DNA of 64,000 nt from Bryopsis sp. KO-2023. Its lineage: Eukaryota; Chlorophyta; Ulvophyceae; Bryopsidales; Bryopsidaceae. The notes under the pieces are model-generated. The model was not told where the DNA came from, ran no database searches, and saw nothing but the letters and a program-made list of their open reading frames with translations. Both the position numbers and the translations under genes were made by a program. Below, piece after piece: positions 1 to 24,354 of this stretch. The stretch lies in NCBI GenBank assembly GCA_030272585.1, contig BSYQ01000010.1:2914001-2978000 (forward strand), read 5' to 3'. Positions within the stretch are counted from its first letter, which is position 1. Each line of letters starts with the position of its first letter.

Positions 1-3000
1 GCTGGATGGCTGTGCCCATAGCACCATCAATATAGGCGATTCTCTTGGAGAAGATCGCCTCCAGCTTGTCGAACGTATCTGTCCGTCGCAAAGGATCCAC
101 ATATGGTTTGTATTCTGGGACAGGAGGCAGATTTTCCTCTGGAGCGAGGGTATCCACATTGTCAGGAACAGGGTTCTCTCTCGGTGGGATCTTGACCTGC
201 CCCTGGCCGCCAAGTTTGACAACCGCAGTAGGCTTGCTCTTTGGATCAATGGTGGCGGCATACTCCAAGAGCCTTTCGGTTCCATTTTCACATCGGTTCA
301 GAAGCACATCTTCAATGAAAGTGAGCAACTCCTTGTCAAGCTTCTCATAGGCATCATTCTTGACCTAAGGGACACAACCACTGGTTTATTACTTTGGAGG
401 AATCACGGCGATGGTTTTTTTTCAGTCCATAAATAAATGGCATCAGTTCAGTTCAGATTGTCTGATTCAGCGTTTTCTGTCAGCTAGGTATTGGGCTTTT
501 GTTGTCGTACGGATGGTATCAGTATATTGTTAAACTGATAGGATGATGCAGGCGCTCCACGGAACAATGAACTCTACTCATCTCAGCTCACACATGGAAT
601 CATCATGAATCACATGACCAATGGTTTTACAACTGCATCGTTCGTTGTGGGGCCCTCGTCAAATTCAGGCGTGTCTCTATGTTTGACCCTTGTTCACAGA
701 GAGAGAGAGAGAGAGAGTAGAGGCCAGCTTTCGGAGCACAAATACAGTCTGGAAGGTAGTATTATTTCAACCTACCTTCCCTGAATTTTACACGAAAAAA
801 AAAAAAGGTACTCTGAAACTGTACAGTTACACCACTATGCAGGCCATCGGATACTGTGACAGGCTGTTCGCTGAGCAAAACTGCCAGGAGCAGAAGTTTT
901 ACCCAGAGGAGCCCACTGCTTACTGATTCCGGACTTCGGCTAATAAGTGTGTGGATGAACGGCCAATGAAATGAAAAGAGAATACGAAACGATAGAATTT
1001 TTTTGTGTTTGGACATTAGCTGGTGGCGATTGGTGGCTGCGTTTCTTACACCACCCTTTTCACCTGCGATGAAGAAAAATCTGGTCCTCAAGTCATTTTA
1101 TACAGAATGATTCGAACGCGTGCGCGTATGGGCAGAGCAAGTGTCAGACATCGCATCGTAAATCGATTGGTTATTAAGCCTGAAAAGTCAACCCCACCCC
1201 ATTCAGGGTTATTGAGCCGTGTCTACTGGAGCAACCAATGTCCCAGGCAGACTTTCATTGAAACGACAGTTTCTCATACACGAGATGTCGAGCACTTTGG
1301 TATTTTGATCCCCCACTGTGCTCCTAATCTTTCACTGCCTTTGTTGTTCCTCTCCGAAAGAAATAAAAACAAAAAAATGACAAATTCTGCACAGTCCAAC
1401 AAAACGTGAGCTTGCATGCTGACGATCTTCATACATGCTTGGGTTCTTATGCTTGGGTTCTTGACCTTGGTAGGAAAAACAAGTGAACAGATGGATTAGT
1501 ATCACCCTACGTTACCCCCAAATATTTGGATTGAATCGTACCTGAACAGTGTTTACAATCCCCATGTCCATTCCCGCCTTGCATGCGTAATGGAGAAAAG
1601 CGCTGTGGAATCCTCTCCTCACAGGTTCATTTCCACGGAATGAAAAAGCAATGTTGGAAACTCCTCCACTGATCTTACACCCTGGGCAAACCCTCTTGAT
1701 CTCCCGGGTGGCTCGAATAAAGTCCACAGCATAGTTGTTGTGCTCGGATAGACCAGTCCCCACTGTTAAAATATTGGGGTCGAACACTACATCTTGGGGA
1801 TCGAATCCAACATCCTCCACCAGAATCTTGTATGCTCGTTGACAGATGCGAACCTTGTCGGCATATCCAGCGGCTTGACCCTCCTCATCGAAGGCCATCA
1901 CCACCACAGCCGCTCCATGTCGTTTCACGATATTTGCATGCTCTCGGAATTTCTCTTCTCCCTCCTTCAGTGAGATAGAATTGACAATGCATTTTCCCTG
2001 ACTGCACTTCAGCCCATTCTCCACGATGAAAAACTTCGAGGAATCCACCATGAAAGGTATTCTGCTCGTCTCAGGATCGCTCACCAACAGATTCACAAAC
2101 TTGGTCATGGCAGCACCTCCGTCAATCAACCCATCGTCCATATTAATGTCCAAGATATCCGCCCCCTGCTGGACCTGCTTCAAAGCTATGGAATGTGCCT
2201 TGTCGTAGTCCCCATCCACAATGGCTTTCTTGTACATGATAGATCCAGCCACATTGCACCTTTCCCCAACATTCAAAAAGGTTTTCCGCATGTTCGTCTC
2301 ATCAGGGTAATAGTTCAACGGCTCTAGGCCACTCAGCTTCATAACGTTGTCAATCTCATGTTTTTCCCTGGGCTCATATTCCTTGCTCATTTTCACCACT
2401 GCTGCTATGTGGTCGGGTGTGGATCCACAGCAACCACCCAAAGCATTCACAATGCGATCTTCGCAGAACGGCTGGAGCTCGTCGGCCATTTCTTGAGGCT
2501 TCTGGTCGTATCCCCCCATGGCATTCGGCAATCCAGCATTTGGATATGCAAAGACGTAGCAATCGCTGCACTTGCCCAGGTTCTCCACATATGGTTTCAT
2601 GTCTGTCGCTCCGAGGGCACAGTTCAATCCAATCGCAAAAGGTTTTGCATGTCGAACACTGTTCCAGAATGCTTCGTTTGTCTGACCACTGAGCGTCCTG
2701 CCAGACATATCAACGATGGTGCCACTGATCATGACAGGGATTCGGATGCCCTTATCCTCGAAAAATTTCTCCAGGGCAAAAATGGCGGCTTTGGAATTCT
2801 GGGTGTCGAAAATGGTTTCCACCAAGAACAAATCCACTCCTCCATCATAGAGACCAATGCATTGGTCATAGTAAGCATCCACCACCTCATCGTAAGTGAT
2901 GCCCCGAAACGCAGGGTTTTCCACAGATGGTGAGACTGACAAAGTCTTGTTGGTAGGCCCAATGGCTCCTGCCACAAATTTGTCCTCTCCAGGATGCTCC

Positions 3001-5558
3001 TTCATGTAAGCTGCAGTGCATTTCTTGGCCAGCTCGGCAGCAGTTCTGTTGATCAGATAAACCTCCTCTTTGGCTTCCAGTGCATAGTCTGCCTGAGAAA
3101 TAGATGTACCATTGAAAGTGTTTGTCTCCAAGATATCCGCCCCAGCCTCCAGATATGCAGTGTGGATTTCAGCGATCACGTCGGGCCTGGTAATCACCAA
3201 CAGATCATTGTTTCCTTGGAGCTCGCTGCCGTGATTCTTGTACCGCTCCCCCCTGAAGTCTGCTTCCTTCAACTTATATTGCTGGATGGCTGTGCCCATA
3301 GCACCATCAATGTATGCGATTCTCTTGGAAAAGATTGCCTCCAGCTTATCAAATGTGTCAGTCCGTCGCAAAGGATCCACATATGGTTTGTATTCTGGCA
3401 CAGGGGGCAGATTCTCCTCTGGAGCGAGGGTGTCCACATTATCGGGAACAGGGTTCTCTCTCGGTGGGATAGTGGAAGCTTCTTCTCCATTGATCTTTTT
3501 CACGGCGGTGGGTTTGCTCTTGGCATCAATCGTGGCTGCGTAGTCCAGCAGCCTCTCCGTGGAGTCATCCCTTCTGTTCAAGAGCACATCCTCGATGTAC
3601 TGCAGCAATTCCTTGTTGATTTTCTCATACGCATCGTTTTTCACTTGGATAGTGTTGACGATCCCCATGTCCATTCCAGCTTTGCATGCATGATGGAGAA
3701 AAGCGCTATGGAATCCTCTCCTCACAGGTTCATTTCCACGGAACGAAAAAGCAATGTTGGAAACTCCTCCACTGATCTTACATCCTGGGCACACCCTCTT
3801 GATCTCCCGAGTGGCTCGAATGAAATCCACAGCATAGTTGTTGTGCTCGGATAGACCCGTACCAACAGTCAGGATGTTGGGGTCAAAAACAATATCTTGA
3901 GGATCGAATCCAACATCCTCCACCAGAATCTTGTATGCTCGTTGACATATGCGAACCTTGTCCGCATATCCAGCGGCTTGACCCTCCTCGTCGAAAGCCA
4001 TTACCACCACAGCCGCCCCGTGTCGTTTCACGATGTTTGCATGTTCTCGGAATTTCTCTTCCCCTTCCTTCAGTGAGATGGAATTCACAATGCACTTTCC
4101 CTGACTGCACTTTAACCCGTTCTCCACGATGAAGAATTTGGACGAATCGATCATGAAAGGTATCCTACTCGTCTCAGGATCGCTCACTAGTAGATTCACG
4201 AACTTGGTCATGGCAGCACCCCCATCAATCAACCCATCGTCCATATTAATGTCCAAGATATCCGCCCCCTGCTGAACCTGTTTCAGAGCTATGGAATGCG
4301 CCTTGTCGTAGTCCCCATCGACGATCGCCTTCTTGTACATGATGGATCCCGCCACATTGCACCTTTCGCCGATGTTCAAAAAGGTTTTTCGCATGTTCGT
4401 CTCATCAGGGTAATAGTTCAACGGCTCCAGCCCGCTCAGCTTCATAACATTGTCAATCTCGTGTGTTTCCCTGGGCTCATATTCCTTGCTCATCTTTACT
4501 ACAGCAGCAATATGGTCGGGTGTGGATCCACAGCAACCACCCAAAGCATTCACAATGTGATCTTCACAGAACGGCTGCAGCTCGTCGGCCATCTCTTGGG
4601 GCTTTTGATCATATCCCCCCATGGCATTTGGCAATCCAGCATTTGGATAAGCAAACACGTAGCAATCGCTGCACTTGCCCAGGTTCTCTATATATGGCTT
4701 CATGTCTGTCGCTCCAAGGGCGCAGTTCAATCCGATGGCAAAAGGTTTTGCATGTCGAACGCTGTTCCAGAATGCTTCGTTCGTCTGACCACTGAGCGTC
4801 CTGCCAGACATATCCACGATGGTGCCACTGATCATGACAGGAATTCTGATACCCTTATCCTCAAAGAACTTTTCAAGGGCAAAAATGGCGGCTTTGGAAT
4901 TCTGTGTGTCGAAAATGGTCTCCACCAAGAACAAATCCACCCCTCCATCGTACAAACCGATGCATTGGTCATAATAAGCATCTACAACCTCATCGTATGT
5001 GATACCCCGAAACGCTGGATTCTCAACAGATGGGGACACTGACAGAGTCTTGTTGGTAGGTCCAATGGCTCCTGCCACAAATTTGTCCTCTCCAGGATGC
5101 TGCTTCATGTAAGCTGCAGTGCATTTCTTGGCCAGCTCGGCAGCAGTTTTGTTGATCAGATAAACCTCCTCTTTGGCTTCCAGTGCATAATCGGCTTGAG
5201 AAATGGATGTGCCATTGAACGTGTTTGTCTCCAGGATATCCGCCCCAGCCTCCAGATATGCAGTATGGATTTCAGCGATCACGTCAGGCCTGGTAATCAC
5301 CAACAGATCATTGTTTCCTTGGAGCTCACTGCCGTGGTTCTTGTACCGTTCTCCCCTGAAGTCTGCTTCCTTAAGCTTGTATTGCTGGATGGCTGTTCCC
5401 ATCGCACCATCAATGTACGCAATCCGCTTGGAGAAAATGGCCTCCAGCTTGTCGAACGTGTCTGTCCGTCGCAAAGGATCCACATATGGTTTGTATTCTG
5501 GGACAGGTGGGAGGTTCGCGTCTGGCGCGAGCGGATCGTCCGGCTTGGTGCCACTCAT
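1..5558 (-). CDS. metH: Cobalamin-dependent methionine synthase with tandemly repeated Hcy/pterin halves (3' end off window)
   Basis: 5-methyltetrahydrofolate:homocysteine methyltransferase of cytosolic one-carbon metabolism. Each unit shows the homocysteine-binding barrel (IDGAMGTAIQ, GPTNKTLSVSPSVE, zinc cysteines in GLNCALG and GGCCGST) followed by the pterin-binding barrel (NIGERCNVAGS, DINMDDGLIDGGAAM, CIVNSISLKEGE, ISGGVSNIAFSFRG). After about 700 residues the protein restarts at the same N-terminal sequence. An intron at 365-1541 (donor CAG/GTACG, acceptor TTAG/GTCAAG, phase 0) joins unit 2 to the start of a third unit at 1-148. The cobalamin-cap, B12 and SAM-activation domains of a normal MetH (about 1,230-1,270 residues in total) must lie beyond position 1 if present. 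I start at the ATG at 5558 (MSGTKPDD); a longer frame begins with TTG only. Family identity is certain; the repeated architecture is what is unusual. Confidence 0.95.
149..5531 (-). repeat. Tandem 2,103-bp coding repeat in metH (units 1 and 2; unit 3 begins at 148)
   Basis: Equivalent points (codons LAP just before NLPPVPEYKPYVDPL) fall at 5531, 3428 and 148. The first spacing is 2,103 bp. The second is 3,280 bp, which is 2,103 plus the 1,177-bp intron. Units 1 and 2 differ at about ten residues (K/R, Q/E, several I/V, H/R, T/K, H/Y) but at many silent sites, so they are distinct copies held by selection or gene conversion and not a duplicated read. Confidence 0.93.
365..1541 (-). other. Intron of metH between unit 2 and unit 3
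   Basis: Phase-0 intron with GTACGA donor and CCTTAG acceptor on the minus strand. The position it interrupts (NTVQ / VKNDAYEK) is uninterrupted in the junction between units 1 and 2. It contains a (GA)n run near 698-718. Open frames inside it have no recognisable content. Confidence 0.85.
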
Positions 5559-5750
5559 CTTGTCTCCCGCCAAGTTCCGCCAACAGTGTCGAGGCCGTAC
5601 GCAGTTTCCGTTCGTCGGCGGGCGGAGGCAGCCAGGAATACAGATTCTTCAATTTGCCACGTCGTACTTACAGATTCCATTTGCATTGGGAAAGGCAGAG
5701 CACGTGACACCTCCGCTCGAATCCAAATCCAATCTCGAACAGCTGATGAA

Positions 5751-11042: not shown

Positions 11043-11487
11043 AGCAGAGTTGCTTTGCTCTGACGGCCTTTTGAATTGAATATTGATCTCCGACTCTTCT
11101 ATTTTTTTACTACCTTGTGATATCTTTGGCCGACGCCACGACGACGTGGTCAATCAGCAAACCGTCGGCGGACTTCGTCTTCGATACCTTCGAGGAAAAG
11201 CTTTCGCACCACGCTGTGCTGGGAAAACAGGCTTGATTGCATTTCTCTCTGTGAAAAATATTATTGACCAGTGACGCGCAGCTAGCGTTTTTCGAACGGA
11301 AAGAGAAGCTGGGTCGAAAAAGGGTTTTGAAGTGTGAAACCGGACAGACCGGCAATTTGGACCGGTGTTTTTATTTGCATTGTGGGCAGGCAGTGCATTG
11401 ATTTGGAATTGATTTGTTTTTCGACGTATTGTCGACAGCTCCCTGACACTACCGCTCCTCTCCAACCCCTTATTCGCTCTCTCCCTC

Positions 11488-14400
11488 ATGGACGTTCACA
11501 TGCTGGCGCAATGCCTCACTGGCCTGGCGGTTCCCGAATTCAACGCTCAGTGTCGGGACCCTGACGACTTCTTGGATTCGTTCGAAGGTTGGCTGGGAAA
11601 AACACAGGCTTGGAGTGACGAAATGGCGGCCAAGCGATTGCCGTTCTTCTGCATAAAGGAATATCGCCACTGGTGTGAGCGATTGGTGACCTTAACAATT
11701 ATAGTGGATGAACGCGGTCGGACAACATACGATTGGAGTCAAATTCGGACGAATTTCGCAAAGGAGGGCGCTGTGCTACTGGGATTGGTCCAGGACTTCG
11801 CGGATGACTTACGCAAAGTAAGGATGACCGCCGGTGATACGGTCGCCGCCTACACCCTGAGATTCGAGCGCGTCACCAACAAAGCGGGAGGCGCAGTGTC
11901 TGAGCAGGAGCAGATTAAAGCATTTCTGCGTGGCCTCGCATCAGACGTACAAGAAAAAGTGATGAACAAAATGCCTAATACAATTAAAAAGGCAAAACAG
12001 TTTGCCACCCAGGCGGCTGAAATTATTACATACAAACAAAGGATAAGGATCGATTCACCTCTCGCTCCTGCACCAGCACTTTTGCCTCGACCAGTCCAAG
12101 CATCAAGTGTGGAAGAACCACCGACACCCACATCTCAGGCAACTCCATTTCTGGCGCTGCCAGCACCAGGAGTCGTCAATCAGGATATTGCGTCATTGGC
12201 AGCGCAAGTCGGAAAGCTGACGGAAGTAGTGACACGCATGGCGACGCAACAAGAAACGCAAACACGAAAAGAGCGACCCACAGTCCATTGGCAAAACAGT
12301 CAGCGTCCACCAATTGCGACAGGCAGCAATCAAGTTCCACTTGGAGGTCAGCTCGATCAATCCAAAGCGGCTGGACGATGTTTTATTTGTCAGTCCCCAG
12401 ATCATTGGGCTGATCGGTGCCCTCAACGCACTGGAAAAAAGCCGGATCAAGCACGATTGGCGCGGGTGGCACCTGCCGAGGACAGTATTGATTTCTCGTC
12501 ACCATGTCCGGTGATCGAATCAGCACGTGTCGGAAAGCGGCAAAGGAGTGGTGAAGGCGCAGCAAGGAAGCCGAGGATCAAGACCACCTTGGACGCGGAT
12601 TTTGAAGCATTTATGGGTGACATCAAAGTGCCATTAAAACTTTGGCAGAACAGATCCAAGAAGCAAATGAACATGCAGTGGCAGTTGGGGTCACGAAAGT
12701 TCTTGATGCCTCCGCCGAAGCGAGCGACTGGATTCGTGCCACCTCCACCACCTCCCCCTAATTCGACTGAAGCTCAACCGACTGCAAGTGCCGATGCCAT
12801 GCACCTTGCACAGGAGGTCGCGCGACAGGCGGCGGTGGTGTATGGAATGGTTGCAGGTCAGAGTATTCGGAATGTCATACTGGATCCAGGGGCGTCCAGG
12901 ACGTTATTGGATGCGGAACAAGCGCGAAAACTCAATCTACTGCAGAAGTTGAACCCAGCTCCGTTTACGATTATGTTGGCGAATGGTGCTTCGGAACCAT
13001 TGCTGGGTGTTACGGATCCGCTCGATGTGGGCGTCAGCACTGCGACAGCCACTCTATCCATTGGAGTTGTTCAGGCGCGACAGTCATACGATTTACTGTT
13101 GGGGCAAGACTATCTCAAGGCAGTGAAGGCCTCAGCCGATTTCAAACGACAAACTTATCGACTGCAAGGGAATCCAGGGGTGACAGTACAACAAGGCAAG
13201 CATCAGTTGCATATGTATGTGGAGGAAGTGGATGGATCTGATGGCTTGGAGTGGGATACTGATGAATCGGAGGAAGAGAGTGAATCAGAGGAGATGACCA
13301 GTGCCACTGAGAGTGCGTTTCGAGCATGGGAAGTTAAGGCAGAGGATCAAATGTTGCAAGCTTTGCGAACGTCAACAGAGGTCGACGACAATCCACTCAA
13401 GGAAGTGCACATTAATACGGAGTTATCCAAAGCAGTTCAGGCCGATATTTGGGAGGTGCTGACCAAGTACAGCTACGTCTTCACGTCGGATATCACGCAG
13501 ATGCTTGTCACGACGACTGCGCAATTTCATATTAACTTGAAACCAGGAGCTGTACCTTGGAAGTGTGGTCGACTGAGACGATATGCACCCAAAGAGGTGG
13601 CGTTCATGAAAGAGCACTGCGAAAAATTACTGGAGGCGAATATGATAGTCCCCACAAATACAACGACATGGTTGGCAGCAGCAACGGTCGTTCCAAAGAA
13701 GGATCCAGTGACTGGCGACTGGAATTTGCTTCGATTCTGTGTGGACTACAGAAAATTGAATGAGGCAACATTGGATGACCCATATCCGCTGCCCAGGACG
13801 GATATGTTATTGGACGAATTGGCCGGACATTCCTTTTACACCACGCTGGATTGTTTGGCAGGGTATCATTCCGTGGAAATTGCACCAGAATCGCAGCCCC
13901 TCACTGCTTTTCTCACCCCATTCGGTATTTACTCGTGGAGAGTAATGCCCTTTGGAGTCAAAAATGCGCCCGCCTGTTATATGCGGATCATCGATCATAC
14001 CCTGCTGGGCGTGAAGGAGGCGGCTGCGTTTGTGGACGACATTTGTCAAGGCGCAGACACTGAAAAAGCTATTGCACCGAATCTGGAGACGTTGCTGAGC
14101 AAAATGGCTGGAGCAGCACTGCGCTGCAAACCGTTGAAGTGTCACGTGGGTTATCCCACCGTTGAATTCCTGGGCCATCGTCTATCGCGTCAGGGATTGA
14201 GTACTCAAGCTCAGAAAGTGCAGAAAGTGGCTGCGGCATTACCACCAAGGAATCGGGAGGAATTACAATCATTTTTGGGATTATCGTCTTACTACAGACG
14301 ATTTGTACCGAAGTTCGCTGCTCGAGCCAAAGTGTTGCACACGATGGTCGCTACAACACCTTTTCCTGAGTGGACAAAAGAGAGGATGGATGCATTCAAC

Positions 14401-16014
14401 GATCTGAAAGGTGCATTAACGACGACGCCAGTGTTGGCAGCCCCTCAAGCGGGTGTGGCGTACATTATCGACTCGGATGCATCGCAATATGCATCAGGTG
14501 GAGTGCTCAGCCAAATTCAAGATGGCGTGGAACGACCTGTGTTTTACACGAGCAAGATGTTTTCTACGACAGAGCGAAACTACAGTACCACCGAGCGAGA
14601 GGGATTGGCGGTCATACACGCACTCAAGGCGTTCAGACCATATGTGTTGGGCGAAAAAATTACCCTGCGAGTGGATCATGCGCCATTGCTCGGTCTATTC
14701 AGGAAAGTGGACCTTACAGGCAGGGTGGCACGATGGCAGTGTCAAATCCAAGAATATACGGAGCTGGAAATGATAACCCGAGCAGGAATCAGACATCGCA
14801 ATGCTGATGGGTTGTCCCGATTGCGCTGTCAAGAGTCAGAAATGGAAGTGGTGCGAAGCGCTAGGGTGCAATGGCGCAGCGTGGATTGGTATGATCAGGT
14901 TGTTGGGCTGTTGGTGCAAGGCGAAACGGAGGAGGAATTATCGGAATTCATGGTCCAGGAGGGCAGACTTTGGCATCGTAATTGCGATGGGGCGGTTCGT
15001 CAGTGTTTGCGCAGCAAGGATGTGGAAAGTGCAATTCAGGTTGCACACTGCGTGGGCCATTTTGGAGTGCAGGCAACGGCGATGAGAATCAGGGAAACCT
15101 TTTGGTGGCCAACCCTTTTTCGCGATGTGAAAGAATACGTGCGTCGGTGTGTGAACTGTCAGCTGGTGGAACCAAGGAGAGGGCCAGGTCGCATTGAACC
15201 AATGGTTGTGCGTTCAGTTTGGCAAGTGTTGGAGGTGGATTACTGCGTTGGAATGCCACGATCGCAAGCTGGGAATGTCGCGTTATTGACGCTGGTGGAT
15301 TGTGCCAGTGGCTATGTTATCGCGGAGGCAACCCCAAACTATGACAGTACCACGGCGGCTCAATTTCTGCTGAAGCGAGTGTTCCTCGTTTTTGGAACAC
15401 CACAGGTGCTGTATTCGGATAATGGGTCGCATTTTCAAGGTGAAGTCGCTGATCTGGTCGCAAAGCTGGGGATCAAACAAAAGAAATCGATTCCTTACAG
15501 GGCTGAAAGTCATGGAAAAGTGGAGAATGCACACCATTTGATTTTGGAGCGATTGCGTCGATACAATGTCACGAATGAAAACTGGGATCAATATGTGGCA
15601 GCAGCTTGTTTTGCCATCAATACCAGGCAAACTGAGACATACATTCACTCACCATTAGAGTTGATGTGTGGGTTGAAACCAAGACTCCCAGGAGAAGTGT
15701 GGATGGCAGAAAATGGAGTGGCAGTTCCAGTGATGGAAGTGAGAAAAGAATTGGGCTGTTTGGGATTGATTCGGGACCATGCACTGGATGTCATGAGTGA
15801 GAAAAGGGACCAATGGGCCAAGAATAGTGCTTATGGAAGCACAGAGCAGATCAAGCAAGGAGATCAAGTCATGGTACTGACTGATCCAAAACACAGGAGC
15901 AAGGTGGAGGTCTACTGGAGAGGGCCATACGAGGTTGAGTGGGTTGGAGAGCGAGGAGCGGTACGTGTAAAGGGTAAGTTGTTTGCTGATTGGCAAATAA
16001 AAACGTTGAAGTAA
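11488..16014 (+). CDS. Gag-Pol polyprotein of the Ty3/gypsy element (1508 aa)
   Basis: One uninterrupted frame. Residues 1-290 are Gag-like. A CCHC knuckle (CFICQSPDHWADRC) begins at residue 298. An aspartic protease follows with the catalytic triplet written DPGAS near residue 467, where DSG or DTG is usual. Reverse transcriptase spans about 640-900 with YPLPRTD, LDCLAGYHS, MPFGVKNAP and AFVDD at 847-851. RNase H starts with DSDAS near 995, with TTEREGLAVIHALKAF and VDHAPLLGL. Integrase has the H-H-C-C zinc site (HCVGHFG...CVNCQ) and D,D-35-E core (VDYC, YSDNGSHF, GKVENAHH). The tail has a GPY/F module (YWRGPYEVEWV). No chromodomain is seen. Gag and Pol are in one frame, so no frameshift is needed. 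Confidence 0.95.
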   Translation: MDVHMLAQCLTGLAVPEFNAQCRDPDDFLDSFEGWLGKTQAWSDEMAAKRLPFFCIKEYRHWCERLVTLTIIVDERGRTTYDWSQIRTNFAKEGAVLLGLVQDFADDLRKVRMTAGDTVAAYTLRFERVTNKAGGAVSEQEQIKAFLRGLASDVQEKVMNKMPNTIKKAKQFATQAAEIITYKQRIRIDSPLAPAPALLPRPVQASSVEEPPTPTSQATPFLALPAPGVVNQDIASLAAQVGKLTEVVTRMATQQETQTRKERPTVHWQNSQRPPIATGSNQVPLGGQLDQSKAAGRCFICQSPDHWADRCPQRTGKKPDQARLARVAPAEDSIDFSSPCPVIESARVGKRQRSGEGAARKPRIKTTLDADFEAFMGDIKVPLKLWQNRSKKQMNMQWQLGSRKFLMPPPKRATGFVPPPPPPPNSTEAQPTASADAMHLAQEVARQAAVVYGMVAGQSIRNVILDPGASRTLLDAEQARKLNLLQKLNPAPFTIMLANGASEPLLGVTDPLDVGVSTATATLSIGVVQARQSYDLLLGQDYLKAVKASADFKRQTYRLQGNPGVTVQQGKHQLHMYVEEVDGSDGLEWDTDESEEESESEEMTSATESAFRAWEVKAEDQMLQALRTSTEVDDNPLKEVHINTELSKAVQADIWEVLTKYSYVFTSDITQMLVTTTAQFHINLKPGAVPWKCGRLRRYAPKEVAFMKEHCEKLLEANMIVPTNTTTWLAAATVVPKKDPVTGDWNLLRFCVDYRKLNEATLDDPYPLPRTDMLLDELAGHSFYTTLDCLAGYHSVEIAPESQPLTAFLTPFGIYSWRVMPFGVKNAPACYMRIIDHTLLGVKEAAAFVDDICQGADTEKAIAPNLETLLSKMAGAALRCKPLKCHVGYPTVEFLGHRLSRQGLSTQAQKVQKVAAALPPRNREELQSFLGLSSYYRRFVPKFAARAKVLHTMVATTPFPEWTKERMDAFNDLKGALTTTPVLAAPQAGVAYIIDSDASQYASGGVLSQIQDGVERPVFYTSKMFSTTERNYSTTEREGLAVIHALKAFRPYVLGEKITLRVDHAPLLGLFRKVDLTGRVARWQCQIQEYTELEMITRAGIRHRNADGLSRLRCQESEMEVVRSARVQWRSVDWYDQVVGLLVQGETEEELSEFMVQEGRLWHRNCDGAVRQCLRSKDVESAIQVAHCVGHFGVQATAMRIRETFWWPTLFRDVKEYVRRCVNCQLVEPRRGPGRIEPMVVRSVWQVLEVDYCVGMPRSQAGNVALLTLVDCASGYVIAEATPNYDSTTAAQFLLKRVFLVFGTPQVLYSDNGSHFQGEVADLVAKLGIKQKKSIPYRAESHGKVENAHHLILERLRRYNVTNENWDQYVAAACFAINTRQTETYIHSPLELMCGLKPRLPGEVWMAENGVAVPVMEVRKELGCLGLIRDHALDVMSEKRDQWAKNSAYGSTEQIKQGDQVMVLTDPKHRSKVEVYWRGPYEVEWVGERGAVRVKGKLFADWQIKTLK

Positions 16015-22392: not shown

Positions 22393-24354
22393 ATGCAACT
22401 GGTGCGCCACGCCGTTCGGAAAACCGTCTGCGAGTTTGGGAAAGCCTACCCATCAGCGAAAACGAGAAACAGAAACCTTGCAGATACTTTTCTCAAAGAA
22501 GAAACGAGGTCTGGGCGGCGAACGCGCTGTTCGAATCTCGCGACGGGGGCTATGGACTTGCAGTTCAACGAAACGAACGTCAGAGTGAGCTCCAGAGAAA
22601 TCATCCCACAGCTCACGGGTAAGGGCGGATTTTTTTTTCTTTGTCGACGAACGAGGCATCGGCTTGAGCCCAGTTCTGCTTTGGATGTTTTCACCCAGAG
22701 TGTAGAGCTTTCGTGTTTCGTTTTCAGGGGATTTGTACAAGGGAGATCTGGGGAGGGTGGGGATAGTGGGCGGCTGCCGAGAATACACTGGTGCGCCTTA
22801 CTTCGGGGCGTTTTCTGCGCTGCGGGTAGGTATGCGGTTTGTTTTCATTGAAGTTTCGGAATTTTTTTTTCGTCTAAACTGCATGGGGCGCGGGGATGTT
22901 GGGGGGGGGGGGTGAACACGAATGTCTTGATGTGTCAAATGTTACTTATGCATGCATTCAAGATATTTCGACATTCAAAATTTTGCGCGCCCCGTCGGAC
23001 GATTACGCGAACAATTGATGTCGAACGAATGACTGATGTGAAAACCGAAAGGAAGGGTTTCTGTTTCTGTGGGTGCTGGCAAAATTTCAGAAAGGGGGTT
23101 GGGGGGGGGGGGAAGCCATCATTGATGTACATCATGTTGAAGTTTTTGTGTTTGTGTGTTTGCATCTTTTGTAGCTTGGGGCGGATTTATCGCATGTGTT
23201 TTGTTCGAGAAGCGCTGCTGACATCATCAAGGGGTATTCCCCTGAATTGATTGTGCATCCCTACCTGTACGAGTCTGAACACCTGATGGTAGGGGGAATA
23301 TCCAGCTCCTCGACTGATTGCATCACCTGGCCCCATATTTATGGAATATTCTTTTGATCGATAAAATGTCTTTTTCCTCCATTTGAAGTGGATTTTTTCC
23401 CAAAACATTCAGGTGATATGTAGTTTCATGAAAACGATCCGATAACGAAATTTGTGATTCCAAGTGGGACCTGCTTATAGAAATCTTACAAAATTGAAAT
23501 CTGTAAGATTTATACCTCGATAAAAATGAATCGATGGCCGATGGTGGCAATTCTCAGGGGCGAAATGCTGATTTTTTTTGTTTCGTGGTTGCATAAACAC
23601 GTCAAGATGATTTGCTTTTTTTTTTTCCCTCCAGGAGTCTGACGATAGCTTTGAATTTGCACAAAAGGCAGCCGAAGAGGTATCCGATTGGTTTTCAAGA
23701 TTGGACTGTTTGGTGGTAGGCCCCGGGTTGGGTCGAGATCCTCTCAACCTCGAATGTGCCAGACTCATCATTCACGCAGCCCGTGTGCAAGGTATCCCAT
23801 TGGTGATCGATGCCGATGGATTGCACATAGTCACCGTGGAGCCTGCGCTCATCACCGGCTGTGAAAACGTCATTCTGACGCCAAACCTCAACGAACTGCA
23901 CCGGTTGGCTTTCAGCAAGATGAAAACGCCCTCCGACGCGATCAAAGGCAACGCCAGCATCGAAGCGAGGAGGGATATGGCTTACACTCTTGCCATGGCG
24001 TTCAATGGACCTACAATCGTCTCGAAAGGGGCTACCGACATCATTTGCTGTCCGGAGGGGTTTGTGGAATGCACCGTTCGGTCGGCGAACAGACGATGTG
24101 GGGGGTTGGGGGATGTAATGGCAGGGTGTCTAGCGGTGTTCGTTTCGTGGGAAAAGAGGCATTCGAGGATGAAAGAGGCGGAAGTGGGTTCATTTCCGGA
24201 TTTGGTGTCGGCTGCGTATGGGGCTTGTAGTGTGGTGCGGTTAGCAGCTTCGAATGCGTTCATGGAGAAGGGGAGGTCCATGCTGTGTGGAGACGTTATT
24301 GAAAAAATCGGCCTTGGATTGTGTAAGCTTGAAAGTGGGGGGGCAGGGGGTTGA
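22393..24354 (+). CDS. NAXD: ATP/ADP-dependent NAD(P)H-hydrate dehydratase
   Basis: Repairs damaged S-NADHX/S-NADPHX back to NAD(P)H (CARKD, YjeF C-terminal family, ribokinase-like fold). Four exons: 22393-22618, 22728-22825, 23175-23288 and 23635-24354, all phase-consistent, giving 385 aa against about 350 in animals. Diagnostic stretches in order are [69 protein letters not shown] and [17 protein letters not shown]. The phosphate loop usually reads GGQGD or GGSGD; here it is GGLGD. The first 50 residues are Arg/Lys/Ser-rich, consistent with an organelle-targeting peptide; an internal ATG ([10 protein letters not shown]) could give a cytosolic form. Identity is secure. Confidence 0.94.

What the first reader, a model, noticed from the sequence alone, without database searches (positions are those of the whole stretch)
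1..5558. Methionine synthase with its substrate half amplified in tandem
Known MetH proteins have one homocysteine barrel and one pterin barrel, then the cobalamin and activation domains. Here the two-barrel half occurs at least twice in full and restarts a third time, each unit exactly 701 codons. Units 1 and 2 keep all visible zinc ligands and pterin motifs and differ at about ten residues but at many silent sites, so both copies look functional and constrained. Several methyl-transfer modules could serve one cobalamin domain, or the extra units could be spliced out.
Basis: partly seen in the sequence, partly recalled or inferred. Interest (0 to 1): 0.88.

Follow-up and report, generated by a model that had tools for sequence, protein, structure and literature searches.

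The report
Methionine synthase with four catalytic halves
This alga's vitamin B12-dependent methionine synthase gene carries four near-copies of its substrate-binding half ahead of a single B12-binding half, a layout that turns out to be common in algae and whose purpose is not known.

Summary
Extended leftward in the same 5.1-Mb contig, the gene has FOUR Hcy+pterin units (period 701 codons), then one complete Cap-B12-activation half: six exons, 3396 aa. It is no assembly artefact: units are 90-93% identical in DNA (dS 0.43-0.58) but 98-99% in protein (omega 0.012-0.033), keep the checked catalytic residues, and are separated by two dissimilar introns. Their differences form a patchwork typical of gene conversion.

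It is not unique. All 120 listed homologues of at least 1868 aa (one is this gene's own public model) carry two to four units: green algae, diatoms, thraustochytrids, a pelagophyte, dinoflagellates. In 137 of 160 multi-unit proteins the units cluster together, yet in greens the first junction keeps its own mark, suggesting an old array under concerted evolution. One paper noted a doubled domain in one diatom (PMC4523565); eight searches found nothing wider.

Most likely several substrate halves are used by one cobalamin domain. Shown: architecture and constraint. Inferred: one chain, and co-operation. Splicing isoforms are untested. New variant of MetH.

The parts
1542..5558 (-). exon 1: start codon, units 1 and 2 (1339 codons, no intron)
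   Evidence: open frame 1512..5648; exon model; Pfam
4494..5414 (-). unit 1 homocysteine barrel (PF02574)
   Evidence: C10:2918494-2919414, E 2.7e-89
3654..4370 (-). unit 1 pterin/folate barrel (PF00809)
   Evidence: C10:2917654-2918370, E 1.3e-55
3312..3653 (-). linker 1: stump of the Fol-Cap linker/cap helices, then a copy of the N-terminal extension
   Evidence: helices then about 60 residues of coil in the model
2391..3311 (-). unit 2 homocysteine barrel (PF02574)
   Evidence: C10:2916391-2917311, E 2.3e-89
1551..2267 (-). unit 2 pterin/folate barrel (PF00809)
   Evidence: C10:2915551-2916267, E 3.9e-55
365..1541 (-). intron 1 (1177 nt, GT-AG, phase 0), inside linker 2
1..364 (-). start of exon 2 (unit 3); the exon continues outside the window to C10:2912262, followed by exon 3 (unit 4, Cap, B12; C10:2910937-2907870) and exons 4-6 (activation domain; to about C10:2906477)
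   Evidence: in-frame TAG directly before the exon and no Met in its first 100 codons

Best explanation
The gene encodes one cobalamin-dependent methionine synthase (METH) of 3396 aa (375 kDa) built as four Hcy-Fol 'N-halves' in series followed by one Cap-Cob-Act 'C-half'. SHOWN from sequence: four in-frame units with complete catalytic sets, one complete C-half, strong purifying selection on each unit, patchwise exchange among units, and the same layout with 2-4 units in many algae. INFERRED: it is translated as one chain; the linkers, which copy the enzyme's natural flexible hinge plus an N-terminal extension, let the single cobalamin domain dock on more than one N-half, of its own chain or a neighbour's, so that methyl loading from methyl-folate and delivery to homocysteine need not wait for one pair of barrels. 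Unit number changes by unequal crossing-over and the units are kept alike by gene conversion.
For: Collinear domains and GT-AG exon model. omega 0.012-0.033 at dS 0.43-0.58; upstream units no less constrained than the last: singleton codons 46/30/40/31 synonymous and 3/2/0/1 nonsynonymous for units 1-4. Two-and-two sites in 34 runs against 60.3 +/- 4.4 shuffled. Same layout in all 120 listed long homologues; 14 catalytic positions unchanged in 175 of 181 upstream units. Full-length METH profile well over cut-off. Exons 2 and 3 cannot be translated alone from their own starts. Two-unit proteins from transcript collections in other organisms: P0099, P0108, P0070. Hinge and rigid N-half known from human and Thermus enzymes (PMC13376404, PMC10567725, passages); modelled linker has a low-confidence coil.
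Against: No RNA, protein or kinetic data for this gene. Nothing shows that an upstream N-half reaches the cobalamin domain. One-unit METH proteins are reported in other green algae, so extra units are not indispensable. The public model of this gene cuts 35 residues out of the unit 1 folate barrel, which, if real, would disable it. Six of 181 upstream units have changed catalytic residues.
Confidence: 0.6

Rival explanations
1. Unit number is set by splicing: exon 2 (one unit, phase 0-0) is a cassette, so METH isoforms with different numbers of N-halves, or with a folate-dead unit 1, are made; the four-unit chain may be a minor product.
For: Exons 1 and 2 are both multiples of three (4017 and 2103 nt). 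The public models of this gene and of Ostreobium both splice 35 and 33 residues out of unit 1 only. In Phaeodactylum a 2280-nt in-frame unit was annotated as an intron, with ESTs covering it (PMC4523565).
Against: Units 1 and 2 share one exon without an intron, so at least two units go together. Constraint on unit 3 (exon 2) is as strong as elsewhere. The unit 1 cut uses a GT present in that unit only and may be gene-finder noise.
Confidence: 0.18
2. Neutral amplification: once duplicated in frame, N-halves multiply and are lost by unequal crossing-over, and conversion from the last, working unit keeps them intact; only the last unit matters.
For: Unit number varies among near relatives: Chlorella sorokiniana 3, C. 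vulgaris 2, C. variabilis 1. Units are homogenised in most proteins. In four related proteins the first Hcy barrel has lost Zn ligands.
Against: In this gene the units have dS 0.43-0.58 since their last exchange but dN only 0.005-0.015; an unconstrained copy should have far more. Upstream units show no more amino-acid singletons than the last. In the four proteins with a damaged Hcy barrel the folate barrel of the same unit is kept.
Confidence: 0.12
3. Upstream N-halves do not serve the cobalamin domain of their own chain but work apart: on free cobalamin, on other METH molecules, or as stores of substrate or folate.
For: The N-half is a rigid independent module in human and Thermus enzymes (passages). 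Three units lie between unit 1 and the cobalamin domain.
Against: Would not need fusion to a METH chain; the fusion is kept in distant groups.
Confidence: 0.08
4. Assembly artefact: one unit expanded in the assembly.
For: None beyond the high identity of the repeats.
Against: Units differ at about 8-10% of bases and linkers at 20-31%; the two introns between units align only in patches; the contig is 5.1 Mb of a 28-contig genome; long contigs of other species show the layout, e.g. P0002 on 16 Mb and P0015 on 9 Mb.
Confidence: 0.02

Closest known systems
Human methionine synthase MTR (9SSP, 4CCZ) and bacterial MetH (Thermus 8SSC, 8G3H)
   Same: Each unit is an N-half (Hcy+Fol); the C-half Cap-Cob-Act is complete; unit 4 plus C-half aligns to human MTR over its length at 1545 bits; the modelled Fol1-linker-Hcy2-Fol2 piece matches the human N-half best (TM-score 0.89 by target length).
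   Different: Four N-halves in series instead of one; three extra linkers made of a cap stump plus a copied N-terminal extension.
Multi-unit METH models of algae (e.g. P0002 Haematococcus, P0003 Ostreobium, P0010 Chlamydomonas incerta, P0080 Nitzschia, P0068 Chrysophaeum, P0071 Polarella)
   Same: Same layout: several N-halves, one C-half.
   Different: Mostly 2 or 3 units; of the proteins surveyed only P0002 also has 4. Stramenopile and dinoflagellate linkers are unlike the green ones.
Doubled METH of Phaeodactylum tricornutum noted by Bromke and colleagues 2015 (PMC4523565, section 11 read)
   Same: An in-frame second MetH/pterin segment in one METH gene, put down to duplication.
   Different: One diatom, two units, called to be verified; no breadth, no 3-4 units, no selection or conversion analysis in that section.

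Membership tests
Cobalamin-dependent methionine synthase (MetH/METH) | Full-length METH profile above the curated cut-off | tested here: met
   TIGR02082 metH 4186 bits against 1010.85 for the public model P0001 of this gene
Cobalamin-dependent methionine synthase (MetH/METH) | Hcy barrel with three Cys zinc ligands | tested here: met
   present in all four units (ligand identity recalled, Cys260/Cys323 of human in PMC13376404 passage)
Cobalamin-dependent methionine synthase (MetH/METH) | Pterin/folate barrel | tested here: met
   PF00809 in all four units; 11 checked positions kept
Cobalamin-dependent methionine synthase (MetH/METH) | Cap and cobalamin domain with the His ligand motif, and activation domain | tested here: met
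   GDVHDIGKNIV and the Cap aligned to human MTR (motif role recalled); PF02965 in three exons
Cobalamin-dependent methionine synthase (MetH/METH) | One N-half per C-half (textbook layout) | tested here: not met
   four N-halves, one C-half
Multi-N-half algal METH (group described here) | Two or more N-halves in frame, one C-half, linkers from cap stump plus N-terminal extension | tested here: met
Multi-N-half algal METH (group described here) | One mRNA and one protein carrying all units | not testable with these tools
   no RNA or protein data for this organism; only transcript-derived two-unit proteins elsewhere (P0099, P0108, P0070)

The most novel reading that the evidence does not exclude
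Algae evolved, more than once or very early, a 'multi-cylinder' methionine synthase in which two to four substrate halves share one cobalamin and raise turnover per vitamin B12 molecule. The array is held by selection and homogenised by gene conversion; where conversion lapses the first unit specialises to one half-reaction (folate loading in the group of P0120, P0191, P0192 and P0262; homocysteine methylation in P0070).
Probability: 0.22. Interest if true: 0.82.

Novelty: new variant of a known kind. Interest (0 to 1): 0.62.

Why it matters
MetH is a textbook multidomain enzyme in which one cobalamin arm visits one homocysteine and one folate barrel. If many algae, Chlamydomonas and diatoms included, use two to four barrel pairs per cobalamin, then kinetic and structural models, gene annotation (units mistaken for introns or collapsed in short-read assemblies) and ideas on how phytoplankton stretch scarce B12 need a fresh look. 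It is testable in laboratory algae.

Tried and rejected
Assembly artefact: rejected on divergent units, linkers and introns. Separate transcripts per unit: unlikely, because exons 2 and 3 have an in-frame stop at the acceptor and no Met in their first 100 codons; not excluded if unseen 5' exons exist. A METE loss that would make METH the only methionine synthase: not so here, both METE domains are found on C5 in three pieces each. A second METH gene: PF02965 matched only this gene (3 of 3 candidates); the two PF02574 pieces on C6 are partial matches elsewhere, not followed up, nor the four PF00809 pieces at C10:3066127-3067544. Units orthologous by position: not supported by the barrel tree (137 of 160 proteins have their own units together; one FastTree, midpoint-rooted, no support values weighed; among the 23 misses are near-identical proteins such as P0040-P0051, and the group of P0120, P0191, P0192, P0262).

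Limits of the survey. The searches listed 120 of 147, 120 of 7995 and 120 of 300 hits, and the first two bound the length by design. Single-sequence phmmer misses split domains: P0003 counts as two full units though it has three, and seven proteins (P0065, P0197, P0198, P0209, P0210, P0241, P0259) count as none. Several 'one-unit' proteins begin inside a linker or pterin end, e.g. P0147, P0151, P0166, P0188, so they look like cut multi-unit genes; P0139, P0144, P0193 and P0205-P0207 may be true single-unit genes or collapsed; I could not open those contigs. Two further models, P0197 and P0209, lack other stretches near the unit 1 cut of P0001 and P0003.

Literature: ten searches of open-licence PMC papers: 19, 20, 21, 25, 36, 45, 64, 65 on the architecture, 35 on the organism, 40 on the mechanism. 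Seen: PMC4523565 section 11 in full and passages; PMC13376404, PMC10567725, PMC11439496, PMC6557843, PMC9734096, PMC5765456 as passages; every other paper only in search listings.
Full report
WHAT IS THERE. The window is G000:C10:2914001-2978000 of a 91.1-Mb, 28-contig genome; C10 is 5,138,194 bases. On the minus strand, exon 1 (window 5558..1542) starts at an ATG and holds two complete Hcy-pterin units without an intron. Exon 2 begins at window 364 and continues left of the window. Neighbouring sequence shows four PF02574 and four PF00809 domains and one set of three PF02965 pieces, all on this strand and collinear. My model has six exons with GT-AG junctions, 3396 aa, 375 kDa: units 1 and 2 in exon 1, unit 3 = exon 2 (2103 nt, 701 codons), unit 4 with Cap and B12 domain in exon 3, the activation domain in exons 4-6. 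Units repeat every 701 residues. The public model of the same gene, P0001 (3361 aa), differs only by a 35-residue cut in unit 1.

IT IS NOT AN ARTEFACT. Over 640 codons the units are 90.3-92.5% identical in DNA; dS is 0.43-0.58, dN 0.005-0.015, omega 0.012-0.033 (Nei-Gojobori, no correction for codon bias). In protein they differ at 5-14 of 646 positions. The two introns between units sit at the same codon (NT-I/V-Q|VKND); in the same orientation they align significantly only over 92 nt (81.5%) and their last 29 nt (86%), with some short inverted matches. Codon changes found in one unit only are 46, 30, 40, 31 synonymous and 3, 2, 0, 1 nonsynonymous for units 1-4; upstream units are not less constrained than the last (Fisher p = 1.0). 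The 90 sites that split the units two and two fall into 34 runs, against 60.3 +/- 4.4 when their order is shuffled, 0 of 20000 as low: neighbouring sites share a history, as gene conversion tracts would leave.

IT IS COMMON IN ALGAE. The full-length search listed 120 of 147 hits, limited by design to proteins of at least 1868 aa. All 120, one of them the own public model, have at least two Hcy and two pterin domains; four lack the activation domain. By the names they include Haematococcus (4 units), Ostreobium, Chlorella sorokiniana, Myrmecia, Chlamydomonas incerta and eustigma, Volvox carteri and africanus, Trebouxia and Dunaliella (3), Chlorella vulgaris, Micractinium, Parachlorella and Volvox reticuliferus (2), the pelagophyte Chrysophaeum (3), the diatoms Nitzschia and Epithemia (2), the thraustochytrids Hondaea and Mucochytrium (2), and the dinoflagellates Polarella and Prorocentrum (3; named 'partial'). 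Their places in these groups are recalled. P0016 and P0066 (2 each) bear the codes Chlat1 and Mesvir1, recalled as Chlorokybus and Mesostigma, streptophyte algae. A second search, limited to 583-1855 aa, listed 120 of 7995 hits; full-length one-unit proteins there include Chlorella variabilis, Auxenochlorella, Helicosporidium, Closterium and the red alga Rhodochaete, and P0220, recalled as the glaucophyte Cyanophora. A third search, with the pelagophyte protein, listed 120 of 300 hits and added 22 proteins. Of 262 proteins (P0001 dropped, own model added), 141 have two full units, 17 three, 2 four (this gene and Haematococcus), 95 one and 7 none passing the length filter. I did not test whether bacteria have the layout beyond what these lists would show.

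CONCERTED EVOLUTION. In 122 of 160 multi-unit proteins all units are at least 98% identical to each other, and in 131 of 160 even the least similar pair is closer than any match to another protein, whose median is 91%. In a tree of all units 137 of 160 proteins have their units together. Yet the first junction looks old in greens. Of 65 proteins taken as Viridiplantae by similarity (P0002-P0066 and own), 56 remain after removing near-duplicates; the linker after unit 1 has R at one site in 39 and D two sites on in 44, the terminal cap has C in 53 and N in 51, and P0016 and P0066 show the same contrast. Middle linkers have the terminal type in 16 of 16 green cases scored (by signature search, which does not score every linker). 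This fits an old two-unit array with middle units added later. Against it: whole linkers are partly homogenised too (first against last within a protein 84%, first against first between proteins 73%), the mark rests on two or three sites, and the same residues could have been chosen repeatedly. One of the 11 'C' cases is a counting error (P0003, whose true first linker reads NRREDSTDR). Stramenopile and dinoflagellate linkers are of other kinds, so the layout arose at least three times, or is older and its linkers have drifted apart.

CATALYTIC RESIDUES. At 14 checked positions 175 of 181 upstream and 158 of 160 last units are unchanged. Exceptions: P0070_u1, P0071_u2, P0120_u1, P0191_u1, P0192_u1 and P0262_u1 upstream; P0133_u2 (gaps at the end of the barrel) and P0247_u2 among last units. 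P0120, P0191, P0192 and P0262 lie in one group of the tree; in each the first Hcy barrel has lost one or two Zn ligands and is 72-78% identical to the second, while the folate barrels are at 90-99%. In P0070 the first folate barrel is at 58% and the Hcy barrel at 78%. In Haematococcus, Dunaliella and P0007 the folate barrel of unit 1 differs (81-86%) and its Hcy barrel less (91-99.7%); in P0006 it is the reverse. In these examples unit 1 is the one that escapes.

HOW IT MAY WORK. In human MTR and Thermus MetH the Hcy and Fol barrels form a rigid N-half joined by a flexible Linker 2 to Cap-Cob-Act (PMC13376404 and PMC10567725, passages). Each unit here is such an N-half. The model of Fol1-linker-Hcy2-Fol2 (window 4451..1542, 970 residues, mean pLDDT 87, pTM 0.65) has confident barrels, short helices after Fol1, then about 60 residues mostly of coil, lowest near pLDDT 40; its best PDB match is the human N-half (9ssp, TM-score 0.89 by target length). 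The junctions thus copy the natural hinge. The simplest reading is that the cobalamin domain can use more than one N-half. Purifying selection shows that all four units matter; it does not show how, and an advantage per B12 molecule is a guess. This genome also has both METE domains, so METH is probably not its only methionine synthase.

AN OPEN LEAD. The public models of this gene (P0001) and of Ostreobium (P0003) cut 35 and 33 residues, catalytic ones included, out of the folate barrel of unit 1 only, at nearly the same place. In this gene the cut needs a GT that only unit 1 has. Real unit-specific splicing or gene-finder noise: RNA would tell.

WHAT IS KNOWN. Bromke and colleagues noted in 2015 that the Phaeodactylum METH model has a 2280-nt in-frame 'intron' encoding a second MetH/pterin segment, with ESTs, still to be verified (PMC4523565, section read). 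A survey of METH over 1666 strains used Pfam domains; the 12 passages I saw do not mention repeated units (PMC11439496). Searches brought up nothing on three or four units, on breadth, or on conversion; they cover open-licence PMC papers only and I judged most hits from listings.

ORGANISM. Not given. The closest protein outside its own model is Ostreobium P0003 (81.6% in the best unit pair), a bryopsidalean ulvophyte (abstract). The assembly size recalls a published Bryopsis genome, from memory only.

VERDICT. A real, constrained four-N-half methionine synthase, one of many multi-N-half METH of algae. New variant of a known kind; the duplication as such was glimpsed once before.

Noticed in passing
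window 11413-16014 (+): Open frame of 1533 aa with gag, protease, reverse transcriptase, RNase H and integrase domains in Ty3/gypsy order: an LTR-type retroelement frame without internal stop.
   Followed up: partly
window 23611-24354 (+): Open frame matching NAD(P)H-hydrate dehydratase (PF01256), probably part of a spliced gene.
   Followed up: partly
unit 1 folate barrel, about window 4064-4168 (-): Public models of this gene and of Ostreobium both splice out a similar in-frame stretch with catalytic residues from unit 1 only.
   Followed up: partly
proteins P0120, P0191, P0192, P0262 (related loci, not in the window): Two-unit METH whose first Hcy barrel has lost zinc ligands while its folate barrel is kept.
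   Followed up: partly
protein P0066 and Closterium P0206-P0207 (not in the window): METH with an added PF16561 (AMPK1_CBM) domain listed by the database; in P0066 the linker carries a near-copy of the N-terminal stretch.
   Followed up: no
proteins P0147, P0151, P0166, P0188 (not in the window): Apparent one-unit METH proteins that begin inside an inter-unit linker, so one-unit counts from short contigs are inflated.
   Followed up: partly
G000:C10:3066127-3067544 (outside the window, same contig): Four further PF00809 pieces about 150 kb away, perhaps another pterin enzyme gene.
   Followed up: no
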